Shown in pieces: positions 12,416 to 18,233 of a stretch of 64,000 bases of DNA. The DNA comes from Promethearchaeota archaeon. Its GTDB lineage: Archaea; Asgardarchaeota; Lokiarchaeia; Sigyniarchaeales; SOKP01. The stretch covers positions 1-64,000 of the forward strand of contig JAHPZJ010000023.1 in assembly GCA_019058245.1 (NCBI GenBank), read 5' to 3'. A program made the translations under genes and the position numbers. Each line of letters begins with the position of its first letter. The stretch's first letter is position 1. The notes under the pieces are model-generated. The model made no database searches and was not told the DNA's origin. It worked only from the letters and a program-made list of their open reading frames with translations.

Positions 12416-13075
12416 TTACATCTTCTTCTTTAATAATAAAAAAGTTTGACCAGATTTTTGGTTTGGATTACTTTTTACCATATATCCTTCAAAATTATTA
12501 TTAATAAATGAATTATTAAACATTTTCAATTCGCTCTCATTTTGAGGATAAAATTCAATTACAATTCTTCCATTCTTCTTTAGTATTTTATGTAAATACT
12601 GTGCTGTGTCATTAAGGAGTTTAACTTTCTCCCCATATTTTTCTAATCCATAAGTTATAAAATTGTATGATGATATTGAGATAATAAAATCGATTTTATT
12701 CATTTTAAAAGGTAAATGGTTAGTATCTGCTAAAATAAATTCCAAATCATTATAACTTTTTATAAGTTTTTTTTTTTCTCTTGCCTTTAATAGCATATCA
12801 TTTAAAATATCAATTCCAATAACTCGAAAACCATTTTGAATTAAAATTTCCGATGAAAATCCTGTTCCACAGCCTAAATCCAAAATTAAAGGTGAATCTT
12901 CTGTCATTATCTCATCCTTGTTATCACCTTCTAATCTTCTATCATAAAGATATTCAATACTCTGAAGAGTAGTTTTGTTTTGGTTACGTTTCATCCATTT
13001 TGAATTATTATACTCTTCTGCCTTTTCATGTAAGTAATCCTCAGGGAATTTTGGGAGTCGATTTTTTCTTACCAT
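12416..13075 (-). CDS. Class I SAM methyltransferase, Bud23/WBSCR22-like
   Basis: LILDLGCGTGFSSEIL, GIDILNDMLLKA, IISISSYNFI, GRIVIEFYPQNESEL, C-terminal QTFLLL match the Bud23 pattern. Confidence 0.7.
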   Translation of the reverse strand: MVRKNRLPKFPEDYLHEKAEEYNNSKWMKRNQNKTTLQSIEYLYDRRLEGDNKDEIMTEDSPLILDLGCGTGFSSEILIQNGFRVIGIDILNDMLLKAREKKKLIKSYNDLEFILADTNHLPFKMNKIDFIISISSYNFITYGLEKYGEKVKLLNDTAQYLHKILKKNGRIVIEFYPQNESELKMFNNSFINNNFEGYMVKSNPNQKSGQTFLLLKKKM

Positions 13076-13215
13076 TTCTATAAAATGTTTTTCTATTCGT
13101 GATCACAAATGTCAAAAATAAGCTGATTTATATAAATAACTAAATTCAATTATATATAGAGGTTTTTATATATTCCATATAAAGACAGATAATTATTGTA
13201 AGGATTTGTACAAAA

Positions 13216-13627
13216 ATGTCATACAGGATATTAGTAGTTGATGATGAACCAGAAAAGTGAAGAACTCCTTCAACTTTGATTAGACATTGTCAACTTAACT
13301 GAAAAATTCTTAAAATTAGGGGGTTTTGAGATACTTACAAGTAATAATGCCAAGGAGGCTATGAAAATCATAGAAGAAAACTATGATAATATTGATTTAA
13401 TCTTATTAGACATAATGATGCCTGGACGATCAGGTTATAGTGTTCTTGAAGAAGTTAAGAATAATGAAAAATTTAAAGATATTCTTGTCGTTTTATTTAC
13501 TGTGAAAAGTTTTAATGAGGATGTTCAAAAAGGGAAGAAATTAGGTGCTGATGCATATATCACTAAACCATTCTCAGGTAAGGAACTCCTAGAAAGATTA
13601 AAAGAAATATTAAATATAAAGAATTAA
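13216..13627 (+). CDS. Response-regulator receiver protein, interrupted by a 31-nt insert at 13255..13285
   Basis: MSYRILVVDDEPE | insert | IVNLTEKFLKLGGFEILTSNN...LLDIMMPGRSGY...KPFSGKELLERL. Excision gives a canonical receiver domain. Confidence 0.8.
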
Positions 13628-13795
13628 AAAATTAAACACAGTATTAGTATTACATTAATTTTATTATCTTTTTATCAATATTAATTTATAATTTTAATTT
13701 AGATTTATTACTTATCTAAAAAAATATTAAATACTATTATATATAAGATTGAAATATTACCTTTTTTAATAAAAAATCGTGATTAAAATTGGTTT

Positions 13796-14476
13796 ATGAA
13801 GCAGAAAGTGATAAAATCCCCTTTTTTAAACAAACAATATTTTTCTGTAATTATATTAATTGCAAATATTGTTGTATTTATCTGGCAGATGTTAGATCCA
13901 ACAGGTAAGATGCATATTGAGTATGCTTTTGTTCCTTCTGAATTCTTTAAAGGTCAAAAATTATGGACCCTCTTTACCTCAATGTTCATGCATGGTGATA
14001 TTGTACATATATTTATGAATATGTGGTTTTTTTTTGTAATAACTGATAATTGCGAGCATGCAATGGGACATTGGTTATATCTAGTTACTTATTTTCTTTC
14101 CGGACTATTTGGGAGTTTACTTCATGCATTGAGTACATTAATTATTCCCGTTTGGGGACCTATTTTGGCGAAAATTCCTTCTTTAGGTGCTTCTGGAGCT
14201 ATATTCGGTTTAATGGCGGTATATGTTATACTTTATTCAGGCAATAAATTTTACATTCCTGGAACAACAGGTATGCGAAAAGTAAGTGCAGGTTATTTTA
14301 TAATAACATACTTTATTGCAGAATTAACTTATGCGATATATTCAATAATGGATCCGTTTAGTATAGGTCAAACGGCTCATTTTGCTCATGTTGGTGGATT
14401 CATAGCTGGAGCTATAATAGCGAGTATATTTAAAGCTGTAAAAGGATCATCATATAAAAAGAAACCAAAAGAATAA
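13796..14476 (+). CDS. Rhomboid family intramembrane serine protease
   Basis: MFMHGDIVHIFMNMWFF, SLGASGAIFGLMA, AHFAHVGGFIAG. Confidence 0.93.
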   Translation: MKQKVIKSPFLNKQYFSVIILIANIVVFIWQMLDPTGKMHIEYAFVPSEFFKGQKLWTLFTSMFMHGDIVHIFMNMWFFFVITDNCEHAMGHWLYLVTYFLSGLFGSLLHALSTLIIPVWGPILAKIPSLGASGAIFGLMAVYVILYSGNKFYIPGTTGMRKVSAGYFIITYFIAELTYAIYSIMDPFSIGQTAHFAHVGGFIAGAIIASIFKAVKGSSYKKKPKE

Positions 14477-14596
14477 TTTCGTTTTCTATATTTTCTTTTT
14501 TTTTTCATAAAGTTATTTGAATAATGGGAAATTTAGAAATTTATTATTATTAACACTAATTTTATATCCAAATAGTTCGAAATTTCCACGTATAAT

Positions 14597-15208
14597 ATGA
14601 TTACTAAAATATCATTGATTTTTTTTTGGATGGTTATGATTATCGTTTTAATACATATATTCTATAGAAAATTATCATATAAAATTGAAAGAGCAGTTAA
14701 TTTTCCTGAAATTCCTCATTGGATTTATCCATTAATAATAATTTGTATTTTTGGATATATCTATATATGCTTTTTGACAATAACTTATATTTTTAATCCT
14801 ATTTTTGCATTTAATCTTTTCTTACCAATTACAATGCTAAATATAGACCTTTTAAAAGTAATAGGAGATATTTTTGTTATAATTGGGACTATTATATTTT
14901 TAATAGCATATTTTAATCTAAATTTATTAGCAGATTTAGCAGATAAATCCAACTTATCTAAATTAAAATCAACAGGAATATATGCGATATCAAGAAATCC
15001 TATTTATCTCGGATTGCATATTATAACAATCGGATTTAGTTTAATAATTCCAACATGGATAACATTCATATGTATTATCATATTCATTATTAATTTTCAT
15101 TATAGGATTAAGTTAGAAGAAAAAGAATTAGAGGAAATATTTGGAAAGGCTTATATTGATTATCGAAGAAAAGTTTTGAGATATATTGGTCGAAGGATTA
15201 GAAGTTAA
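14597..15208 (+). CDS. Isoprenylcysteine carboxyl methyltransferase (ICMT)-like membrane protein
   Basis: GIYAISRNPIYLGLHIITIGFSL and C-terminal LEEKELEEIFGKAYIDYRRKVLRYI. Confidence 0.8.
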   Translation: MITKISLIFFWMVMIIVLIHIFYRKLSYKIERAVNFPEIPHWIYPLIIICIFGYIYICFLTITYIFNPIFAFNLFLPITMLNIDLLKVIGDIFVIIGTIIFLIAYFNLNLLADLADKSNLSKLKSTGIYAISRNPIYLGLHIITIGFSLIIPTWITFICIIIFIINFHYRIKLEEKELEEIFGKAYIDYRRKVLRYIGRRIRS

Positions 15209-15390
15209 ATTTTAATTTTAGCTTAAGATTAAAGGCTCGAAAGGATATAAACTATATTTAACTTGAATAAAAACTTTCTTTTTTCGCTTTTACTTCATAA
15301 AAAATACTATTTTATAATAAACTTTTTTTGATAATAAATTATATCAATAATGATTTATTTAGGAATTTAATAATTGTTAGAAAGAGAACT

Positions 15391-16785
15391 ATGAGTATGA
15401 CTCAGATCGTTGTCATAGGAATGGGCTATAAGTTCTGAGACTTCCTCAGTATTGGTTAAGTTGGTATTCCCATGGCAGCATTACTTGCTGATGTTGATGA
15501 TTTTAATGTCACCGGAATTCAGCGAAGATCACAAAGATCAGGGTGGAAAATCGATTGGCTCAATCAAGGAAAGAATCCTTTTGAAGGAGATGAACCAGGT
15601 TTAGATGAGTTAATTTCAAGAGTTGTTAAAAATGGGAAATTTAAAGTAACTGATAAGTATAATCTTGTAAATAAAGCAGATTATATTTTAATCGATGTGC
15701 AAACCCCTGTTGATGAAAATAAAATACCTAGGTATGAATCATTAATTGAAGTTTCTCGTAAAATCTCAAAACACTTAAAAAAAGGAGTAACAATCATTAT
15801 TGAATCCACAGTAGCTCCAGGTACTACTAATAATATAGTACAAACAATGTTAGAAGAAGGTAGTGGACTTAAAAGAGGTCAAGATTTTTATCTCGTATTT
15901 TCTTTTGAACGAGTTATGCCAGGAAAATTATTGGAATATATCACTGATTTTCCTAGAGTTATTGGAGGTGGTTGTAAGGAGGCAAATGAACGAGCAAAAT
16001 TCTTATATGGAAAGGTTGTTAAGAAAGAGCTTCAAGTTACAGATACTCTTACTGCAGAACTTACCAAATGTATTGAAAATTCATATAGAGATGTTAATAT
16101 AGCATTTGCTAATGAAATGGCTTTACTATGTGAAGATTTCGACAGAAATATATACGACATTGTTGAGTTTATAAATCACAGACATGATAGGATGATGCAT
16201 TATCCCGGTAGTGGAGTAGGAGGCCATTGTCTCACAAAGGATCCCTGGTTATTATTATACGGTTATGATAAATATACAGAAAAGAAAAACAAAGAGAAAA
16301 TAAAGCTTATACCAAACTCTAGAAATTTAAATGACTATATGCCCAATCATATGGTTGAATTGATGGAGGATATATTTAGAGAAGCTCATAAATTAGTAGA
16401 TAATATAAAAATTGTTCTTTTGGGAGTTTCTTATAAAGCAGATACTGATGATACACGAAATACTCCTACAGAAAATATTGTGAAAGTATTACAAGGACGA
16501 TATCACTCTCATAATATTATCTATATTGCTCATGACCCATATGTTAATGAGAGGGATTATAGGCTTACAGAACTTACGGATGACTTTAATGAAGCTGTTG
16601 ATAATGCTGATGTTCTTATCTTTGCAACAAATCATAGTGAATATTACAATATTGATTTAGATGATTTAAAAAAAAGAGTGAGGACACCTATTATCATTGA
16701 TGGTAGAAATATCTTTAACAAAAAATTACTACTAGAAAAAGGTTTTATTTATCGAAAAGTTGGAGAAGGTCCTGGAGTACTATAA
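15391..16785 (+). CDS. UDP-glucose/UDP-ManNAc-type nucleotide-sugar dehydrogenase, interrupted by a 30-nt insert at 15430..15459
   Basis: MSMTQIVVIGMGY | insert with TGA and TAA | VGIPMAALLADVDDFNVTGIQ...ESTVAPGTT...YPGSGVGGHCLTKDPW...GVSYKADTDDTRNTP. Confidence 0.85.
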
Positions 16786-16811
16786 AAAAATTTAAAAAAA
16801 AATTTTGTTCT

Positions 16812-16841
16812 TATCTCTGAGTTCTTGCAGAACTCAAAATT
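16812..16841 (-). promoter_or_regulatory. SECIS-like 3'UTR hairpin A (alternatively a terminator)
   Basis: Minus strand TTGA-GTTC-TGCAA-GAAC-TCAGAG; perfect 7-bp TGAGTTC/GAACTCA core (16818..16836). Confidence 0.4.
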
Positions 16842-16860
16842 AAATCCTAACATTTTTGAC

Positions 16861-17016
16861 TTAATTCTTTGAGATTTCTTTATCACTTTCGATTTTTTCA
16901 TTGCGTAGTTTTTGTAGTTTTTGAATTCTTTTATACCACATCTTAATCATATCTCAACTTGTACTGTAACACTCATCATCAAATCCAATATCTAAATAGT
17001 CAATTTCATCTTTCAT
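16861..17016 (-). CDS. Candidate mini-selenoprotein A (UGA at codon 21)
   Basis: MKDEIDYLDIGFDDECYSTS(U)DMIKMWYKRIQKLQKLRNEKIESDKEISKN, TGA at 16954..16956; paralog of 17228..17401; SECIS-like hairpin about 24 nt after the stop. Confidence 0.5.
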
Positions 17017-17174
17017 GATTTTTTAACCTTCTACTTTCTGATTTTTATGGATTAAACTAAAAATAAAAGAGTAGTGATTATAAATAATTAAAATTCAATT
17101 ATATAAACTAATTTTCTATAAAACTTTTAAGACTTTTATTTATTCTCAATAAAAAATAATAAGTCATAATGTTA

Positions 17175-17202
17175 CGTTCTCGAATTTTTTGCGGAATTCA
17201 TA
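17175..17202 (-). promoter_or_regulatory. SECIS-like 3'UTR hairpin B
   Basis: Minus strand TATGAATTCCGCAAAAAATTCGAGAACG; AUGA ... AA-rich loop ... CGAGA, about 27 nt after the stop; similar to hairpin A. Confidence 0.4.
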
Positions 17203-17227
17203 GGTTTAGATTCTAAAATTTAACAAT

Positions 17228-17401
17228 CTATTCCTTGAGAGCTTTTGATTTAATTTTTAATTGTTTTCTTAATCGATATCGTTTTTTTAGATTAACTATC
17301 CCATTTATAACACCATCAATAATACCTCAACCAGTACAAGAGATTTTACTGTAATTCGAATCATTAGTGTCATTTTCCAATTTATGTTTCCATTCTGACA
17401 T
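17228..17401 (-). CDS. Candidate mini-selenoprotein B (UGA at codon 25, CxxU motif)
   Basis: MSEWKHKLENDTNDSNYSKISCTG(U)GIIDGVINGIVNLKKRYRLRKQLKIKSKALKE, TGA at 17327..17329; C-T-G-U motif. Confidence 0.55.
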
Positions 17402-17552
17402 AGTTTGGATACTTTATAGTTTTTTTAGATAGAAAAACAAGTAAGGAAATAAATAGATTATTATTATAATTTTAAACTTAGTTTTCAATAGATTTTTAAG
17501 AGCCTAACCTAACTGTTATTTAATTCACATTTTTTTATAAGAGCTGATATGA

Positions 17553-18233
17553 TTGCTATTCGATTATTGGGATGTAATAAAAGGATTTTTTAATTGGGTT
17601 GCTGAATCCGCAGCAATAATGATGATTTTAAGTGGTATAATGGCTATTACATGGTTGGGGTATGAACGAAAACGTAGAGGATCGTTTTTAAAAAGAAAAG
17701 CTGAAGTAGAGAAATTTGATATTACAAAGTTTCTTAGAGGATTATCATATATTGGATTGATTCTTGGGATATTTGTTGTATGGTCAGGTGCAGTTAGTCT
17801 CATCTTAAATATACCTCCTAGTTTTCAATATAGAGATGTGACTAAAAATGCAGCAAATCATTTTACTAGTATTTTCTTGATTGTTATTGGAATCACTATG
17901 TTTTTTAAGCCTATTAGTGATCTTCCACTTTCAAGTATACTAGGATTATTAGCAGGTACAGTTACAATATTTATTATCGCTTTACTTGTTCCTGATGGAG
18001 TAGTACAATTAATTGGTGGTTTTATAAATCCAAAATGGATACTTGTAATAATATTTATAATTGTGACAGTTATCGTAGGACTCATGGCTAAATTTTCTAT
18101 AGGAACATTGCAGAAAGTCTCCAAATTCTTATCTTGGCCTCCAATTGCTTTAATAATTATGATATTTTGCTTTATTCAAGGTTTTGCATTATGGATTTGG
18201 GGTGTGAGTATCTTTGGGCTTAATATTTTATAA
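17553..18233 (+). CDS. Hypothetical integral membrane protein
   Basis: TTG-start ORF with multiple TM segments. Confidence 0.6.
   Translation: MLFDYWDVIKGFFNWVAESAAIMMILSGIMAITWLGYERKRRGSFLKRKAEVEKFDITKFLRGLSYIGLILGIFVVWSGAVSLILNIPPSFQYRDVTKNAANHFTSIFLIVIGITMFFKPISDLPLSSILGLLAGTVTIFIIALLVPDGVVQLIGGFINPKWILVIIFIIVTVIVGLMAKFSIGTLQKVSKFLSWPPIALIIMIFCFIQGFALWIWGVSIFGLNIL

What the first reader, a model, noticed from the sequence alone, without database searches (positions are those of the whole stretch)
13255..15459. The two inserts look like members of one family, both at coding nucleotide 40
Both inserts begin AAGT, both lie after exactly 39 nt (13 codons) of the reading frame, both are 30-31 nt, both contain a 5-bp stem with a 5-nt loop (CTGAG ACTTC CTCAG; TGAAG AACTC CTTCA), and both continue to TTGRTTA. 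The gapped pattern is roughly AAGT..GA.GA.CT.CC.TCA...TTGRTTA. Because one length is not a multiple of 3, simple stop readthrough cannot rescue both. Hypotheses are an unusual mini-intron or a programmed translational bypass element (analogous in concept to T4 gene 60 or yeast mitochondrial byps). I tried to fold a canonical bulge-helix-bulge and it does not fit well. They lie only 2.2 kb apart.
Basis: inference. Interest (0 to 1): 0.9.

Follow-up and report, generated by a model that had tools for sequence, protein, structure and literature searches.

The report
Thirty-base spliced introns in Lokiarchaeal genes
Two neighbouring genes of a Lokiarchaeon are each interrupted by about 30 extra bases that fold into the shape cut by the archaeal tRNA-splicing enzyme, and the same kind of tiny intron turned up in other genes of ten related genomes, although introns in archaeal protein genes have been thought very rare.

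Summary
The inserts are real and best explained as bulge-helix-bulge (BHB) introns, the class removed from archaeal tRNAs by splicing endonuclease (EndA) and ligase (RtcB). Insert-free relatives fix the junctions: 31 nt in a response-regulator gene (13253-13283), 30 nt in a UDP-glucose-dehydrogenase-like gene (15430-15459). Cutting after the second base of each 3-nt bulge restores both frames exactly. I found 15 intron instances at 7 sites in 10 Lokiarchaeal genomes: these two genes (same sites again in other genera), RtcB itself, a conserved 88-aa protein and a Ras-family GTPase. Most share one plan: 1 + 9-nt stem + 5-nt loop + 9-nt stem + 4-nt central strand + 2 = 30 nt. Pairing is 97% canonical in register, 30-49% when slid. 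For the first six introns the empty site ranks in the top 0.1-1.7% most stable 40-nt windows of its gene. One intron was predicted from the plan alone, then confirmed by homologues; the same plan occurs in a tRNA T-loop. Two EndA subunits (one catalytic) and RtcB are encoded. Bypass, readthrough and decay are disfavoured. No RNA data were available. BHB mRNA introns are known (crenarchaeal cbf5); I found no report of them in Asgard archaea.

The parts
13216..13252 (+). Exon 1 of response-regulator gene (MSYRILVVDDEP + first nt of D)
   Evidence: orthologues contiguous ILIVDDEPDIVNLTEKFL; PF00072 on the joined protein
13253..13283 (+). 31-nt BHB intron 1, AAAAGTGAAGAACTCCTTCAACTTTGATTAG
   Evidence: homology-defined junction; core register ranks 1 of 682; strand folds with z = -4.2
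13237..13246 (+). 5' strand of the outer exon helix, pairs with 13285-13294 (10 bp)
13247..13250 (+). AACC, exon strand of the central 4-nt helix (pairs GATT 13278-13281, one C.A mismatch)
13254..13277 (+). Inner intron hairpin: 9-nt stem, loop AACTC (13263-13267), 10-nt 3' strand with one bulged A
13285..13294 (+). 3' strand of the outer exon helix
13284..13627 (+). Exon 2 of response-regulator gene
15391..15429 (+). Exon 1 of UDP-glucose/GDP-mannose dehydrogenase family gene (MSMTQIVVIGMGY)
   Evidence: orthologues read GMGYVGIPMA; PF03721/PF00984/PF03720 on the joined protein
15430..15459 (+). 30-nt BHB intron 2, AAGTTCTGAGACTTCCTCAGTATTGGTTAA (in-frame TGA and TAA)
   Evidence: unique junction, no slide; core register ranks 1 of 682; R1/R2 matches (a training member)
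15424..15427 (+). GGCT, exon strand of the central 4-bp helix (pairs GGTT 15454-15457)
15431..15453 (+). Inner intron hairpin: 9-nt stem (one U.U mismatch), loop ACTTC (15440-15444)
15418..15422 (+). GGAAT, 5' part of exon outer helix (pairs ATTCC 15466-15470); continued by 15409-15416 with 15472-15479
15460..16785 (+). Exon 2 of the UDP-glucose dehydrogenase-like gene

Best explanation
Both inserts are compact bulge-helix-bulge (BHB) introns in protein-coding genes. In the pre-mRNA, exon sequence on both sides forms a hairpin. The last exon bases before the intron pair with the intron's 3' part (central 4-nt helix), and the rest of the intron folds into a 9-nt hairpin with a 5-nt loop. The tRNA splicing endonuclease cuts after the second base of each 3-nt bulge, and RtcB ligates the exons, giving an unbroken reading frame. 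The empty site resembles a tRNA anticodon arm with the intron at the position equivalent to 37/38. Shown here: insert boundaries and frame restoration by homology, the BHB in the correct register, covariation, recurrence in other genes and genomes, genes for a two-subunit EndA and for RtcB, tRNA BHB introns in the same clade. Inferred: actual cleavage, ligation and translation of the spliced mRNA.
For: Frame: insert-free orthologues fix the junctions. Register: the homology-defined junction is the best of 682 BHB registers in four of the first six introns and within the best six in the other two; shuffled introns reach the observed core with P = 5e-5 to 0.02 each, Fisher 4e-14. Recurrence: UGDH-like GMGY^V also in G022 and GVGG^H in G018; RtcB LPD^A in G035; RR DDEP^D also in G051; an 88-aa gene in 7 genomes plus a second site in G007; a Ras-family GTPase in G007, whose joined protein scores PF00071 at 156 bits against 36 and 111 for the pieces. 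Blind prediction: the 88-aa gene intron in G000 was found from the plan alone and confirmed by contiguous homologues up to 97% identical. Covariation: 97% canonical at register 0, 30-49% when slid; for the 88-aa gene alone 98.6% against 31-53%, three pairs changed on both sides. Exon hairpin: empty site in the top 0.1-1.7% most stable 40-nt windows of its gene in six of six. Machinery: two EndA paralogues, one matching solved catalytic archaeal EndA chains, one without the catalytic His; RtcB. Same plan in a tRNA T-loop, 30 nt, loop ACTTC. Purifying selection: dN/dS 0.03-0.07.
Against: No RNA-seq, cDNA or protein evidence; everything is from MAG sequence. RR intron 1 has a C.A mismatch in the central helix and RtcB a G.A mismatch (relaxed BHB). 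The minimum-energy fold of the UGDH-like site pairs GGCU differently from the BHB register. The UGDH_G022 core is weaker (P = 0.02). The inner hairpin drives much of the shuffle significance; the central helix alone is P = 0.03-0.40. An ab initio BHB scan of 400 kb showed no excess over decoys, so most BHB-like sites are chance. The 37/38 analogy follows from BHB geometry and is not independent evidence.
Confidence: 0.93

Rival explanations
1. Programmed translational bypassing: ribosomes skip the ~30 nt as in T4 gene 60 or yeast mitochondrial byps.
For: Non-triplet lengths (29, 31, 37, 38) and in-frame stops need more than readthrough; each insert contains a hairpin.
Against: No matching take-off/landing triplets (CCA/TTA, TAT/TAA and others, read directly and the loci). 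Bypassing does not predict pairing of exon with intron in a fixed register, 3-nt bulges at the junction, a strong exon-exon hairpin, or the same plan in a tRNA gene.
Confidence: 0.03
2. The genes are decaying pseudogenes, or the inserts are assembly errors.
For: Single MAG for the window; 76% completeness.
Against: dN/dS 0.03-0.07 with closest relatives; no other lesion in either gene; independent MAGs carry inserts at the same codons; the sequences covary; RtcB and GTPase genes with such an insert are otherwise intact.
Confidence: 0.03
3. Another intron class (spliceosome-like GT-AG mini-intron, group I or II remnant).
For: Intron 1 can be drawn as GT...AG.
Against: No shared terminal dinucleotides across the instances; far too short for group I/II catalytic cores; no Rfam match above gathering in 12500-17700; the splice site is fixed by secondary structure.
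Confidence: 0.01

Closest known systems
BHB intron of crenarchaeal cbf5 pre-mRNA (PMC2738675)
   Same: BHB at the exon-intron border of a protein gene, predicted cuts between second and third bulge residues, lineage-specific gain and loss, hetero-oligomeric EndA
   Different: There a single gene (cbf5) in Desulfurococcales/Sulfolobales; here several unrelated genes in Lokiarchaeota, mostly a fixed 30-nt plan, same-site recurrence in distinct genera
Archaeal tRNA BHB introns, including the abundant tRNA introns of Atabeyarchaeia and Freyarchaeia (PMC11291895)
   Same: Same motif, same expected enzymes; one Lokiarchaeal tRNA T-loop intron has exactly the 30-nt plan
   Different: That report covers tRNA genes; 'protein-coding' does not occur in it
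Artificial BHB introns placed in mRNA hairpin loops (PMC8707768)
   Same: BHB intron within an anticodon-arm-like hairpin of an mRNA, cut by an archaeal endonuclease in yeast
   Different: Engineered; here it appears to be natural
T4 gene 60 / mitochondrial byps (recalled, not tested against a database)
   Same: Short non-coding gap with a hairpin inside a gene
   Different: No matching take-off/landing codons; exon-intron pairing instead

Membership tests
Archaeal BHB intron | Two 3-nt bulges separated by a 4-bp helix at the exon-intron border | tested here: met
   4/4 central pairs in UGDH_G000, UGDH_G022, UGDH_G018, RR_G051 and the 88-aa gene introns; 3/4 (relaxed) in RR_G000 and RtcB
Archaeal BHB intron | Junction after the second nt of each bulge | tested here: met
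   Agrees with homology-defined junctions; no slide freedom in UGDH_G000, UGDH_G022, RtcB, RR_G051
Archaeal BHB intron | Exons join to an intact product | tested here: met
   Joined proteins match contiguous orthologues and Pfam domains
Archaeal BHB intron | EndA and ligase genes present | tested here: met
   PF01974 twice and PF01139 once in the own genome
Archaeal BHB intron | Cleavage by EndA and ligation shown on RNA | not testable with these tools
   no RNA data or assay
Broad-specificity (alpha-beta)2 EndA | One catalytic and one non-catalytic subunit | tested here: met
   L296 protein aligns over its length with solved catalytic chains including the Tyr, His and Lys regions; L295 protein lacks the His
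Broad-specificity (alpha-beta)2 EndA | Assembled as a heterotetramer; specific loop with Lys | not tested
   no structure predicted
Programmed bypass element | Matching take-off and landing codons | tested here: not met
   no match in the six introns first found, read from sequence
Group I/II intron | Catalytic core | tested here: not met
   29-38 nt; no Rfam match above gathering score

The most novel reading that the evidence does not exclude
A family of ~30-nt BHB introns of common origin spreads in Lokiarchaeota by reverse splicing into anticodon-arm-like hairpin loops, moving between tRNAs and mRNAs (including RtcB and a Ras-family GTPase), so that an Asgard lineage has a living, still mobile form of pre-mRNA intron independent of the spliceosome.
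Probability: 0.35. Interest if true: 0.9.

Novelty: new variant of a known kind. Interest (0 to 1): 0.8.

Why it matters
Introns in archaeal protein genes are known from very few cases. Recurrent, structurally uniform mini-introns in several protein genes of Asgard archaea, among them a Ras-family GTPase and the splicing ligase itself, would show that mRNA splicing by the tRNA machinery is at work in the group closest to eukaryotes. It would also mean that gene callers truncate such genes or miss their first exons. The same-site recurrence and the hairpin-loop location make the mechanism of intron gain testable.

Tried and rejected
Gapped sequence pattern AAGT..CTC..TTGRTTA: 7 genome hits, only the two known ones real. 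Ab initio BHB plus coding scan of 400 kb: no excess over decoys. L095/G013 'insert' of 23 nt is a run of N. L072/L078 'insert' lies antisense to another gene. Model R1, built on four introns and chimeras of them, missed intron 1 and the G022 intron at default settings. R2 is broader, but its training members score high by construction; its new hits were read one by one: L372 (GTPase) and L358-L361 (tRNA genes) kept; L357, L366 and L220 rejected because an unspliced frame is open; the others left as unsupported. Aligning unrelated introns with MAFFT fails, hence the chimeras. PolD large subunit as a yardstick: no insert of this kind flagged among 81 genomes.

Full report
WHAT THE WINDOW HOLDS. 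The window is contig C23 of a Lokiarchaeal MAG (own genome 3.09 Mb, 31 contigs, 76% complete); named relatives are Candidatus Lokiarchaeota. The first gene is a receiver-domain response regulator (RR; PF00072) and the second a UDP-glucose/GDP-mannose dehydrogenase family protein (UGDH-like; PF03721/PF00984/PF03720). Relatives read ILIVDDEPDIVNLTEKFL and IVVIGMGYVGIPMAALL without interruption. The window genes carry 31 and 30 extra nt. The UGDH-like gene has no freedom in the junction; RR allows four registers.

BULGE-HELIX-BULGE. Taking the junction demanded by the protein, each insert forms a BHB: 4 nt of exon 1 pair with 4 nt near the intron's 3' end, flanked by 3-nt bulges with the junction after the second base. 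For RR: outer exon helix GUUGAUGAUG/CAUUGUCAAC, central AACC/GAUU (one C.A), bulges AG|A and AG|A. For the UGDH-like gene: central GGCU/GGUU, bulges AU|A and AA|G. PMC2738675 gives the same cut rule for the crenarchaeal cbf5 pre-mRNA intron. Over all registers within 15 nt and lengths 24-45, the homology-defined one is best (1 of 682) in four of the first six introns and within the best six in the other two. Shuffling the insert gives P = 5e-5 to 0.02 per intron, Fisher 4e-14. Much of this rests on the hairpin; the central helix alone is P = 0.03-0.40.

OTHER INSTANCES. UGDH-like gene: G022 (29 nt, same GMGY^V site, one base further) and G018 (30 nt, GVGG^H). RR: G051 (30 nt, same DDEP^D site). 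RtcB: G035 (30 nt). A scan using only the plan 1+9+5+9+4+2 re-found the known introns and pointed to one new place on contig C13. A search with the joined 88-aa protein then found contiguous homologues at up to 97% identity, and same-site introns in G012, G018, G007, G056, G070 (33 nt) and G049 (37 nt); G007 has a second, 38-nt intron at LKIPL^IDERV with central CCAC/GTGG. Model R2 found a Ras-family GTPase intron in G007 (30 nt, VGV^N, loop AATTC). The joined protein matches PF00071 at 156 bits, the two pieces at 36 and 111. Total: 15 instances, 7 sites, 10 genomes. Frequencies: RR 2 of 57, UGDH-like 3 of 50, RtcB 1 of 73, 88-aa gene 7 of 72, PolD large subunit none flagged in 81. About 316 kb of homology-covered DNA in each of G000 and G009 gave none besides the window's two, but that survey used ORFs of 100 aa or more and misses short first exons and small genes.

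COVARIATION. Over nine 30-nt introns the plan is 97% paired in register and 30-49% with the partner slid by 1-4 bases; each of the 13 pair positions of the central and inner helices uses two to five standard pair types. For five orthologous introns of the 88-aa gene: 98.6% paired against 31-53% slid, three pairs changed on both sides.

WHERE THEY SIT. With the intron removed, the 40 nt centred on the junction rank among the most stable windows of the gene, top 0.1-1.7% in all six first introns. In insert-free orthologues the UGDH-like sites are also stable (median rank 0.036 and 0.05), while at the RR site they are not (median 0.28; best of 36 is -9.9 kcal/mol against -11.1 and -11.5 in the two intron-bearing genes). 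So hairpins either attract the intron or are kept by it. BHB geometry places 6 nt before and 1 nt after the junction in the exon loop, as in an anticodon loop with an intron at 37/38. PMC8707768 reports that artificial BHB introns in mRNA hairpin loops are cut by an archaeal endonuclease.

MACHINERY. The own genome has two PF01974 proteins; one aligns over its length with solved catalytic archaeal EndA chains, the other lacks the catalytic His. This is the two-subunit type, described as having broad specificity (PMC6379350). RtcB is present. tRNA genes of the sister genome G009 contain BHB introns, such as elongator tRNA-Met with central CTCA/TGAG. A tRNA of G076 carries in its T-loop a 30-nt intron with exactly this plan and loop ACTTC, and related genomes carry a tRNA-like gene with a 31-nt one.

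SELECTION. dN/dS against closest relatives is 0.03-0.07 for both genes, which argues against decay, though it averages over time before and after insertion.

NOVELTY. BHB introns in archaeal mRNA are known (cbf5). In the held library I found no report of them in Asgard archaea; subscription papers and preprints are mostly not held, so this is not proof of absence. New here are the host group, the variety of genes, the fixed 30-nt plan shared with a tRNA intron, and same-site recurrence in different genera.

LIMITS. All evidence is genomic. Models R1 and R2 were trained on natural introns plus chimeras of them, so high scores of training members are by construction. E-values are rough. Whether same-site introns reflect repeated gain, transfer or old presence with loss is not settled.

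Noticed in passing
window 17100-17560, minus strand: Small ORF MSEWKHKLENDTNDSNYSKISCTG(TGA)GIIDGVINGIVNLKKRYRLRKQLKIKSKALKE with the TGA conserved in relatives (L024, L030): a candidate small selenoprotein with a CTGU motif; G009 has tRNA-Sec. No Pfam match.
   Followed up: partly
window ~17150-17200 (minus strand) and ends of L009, L011, L017, L019, L021: Conserved GTTCCGCAAGAAC-type stem downstream of the small ORF, possibly a SECIS-like element; no Rfam match.
   Followed up: partly
L358 1415-1555; L359-L361: tRNA genes with introns in the T-loop and elsewhere, some apparently with more than one intron; those of L292/L294 and L358-L361 were not found by ARAGORN without an intron option.
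   Followed up: partly
PolD large subunit in G013, G021, G049, G050, G057, G080: Open frames of about 1600-1720 aa with the match broken near residue 921: probable inteins.
   Followed up: no
L017/L091 (G018): Upstream of the intron-bearing UGDH-like gene lie fragments of a second UGDH-like copy.
   Followed up: no
L095 6915-6930 (G013): Scaffold gap (run of N) inside the UGDH-like gene, mimicking an insert.
   Followed up: yes
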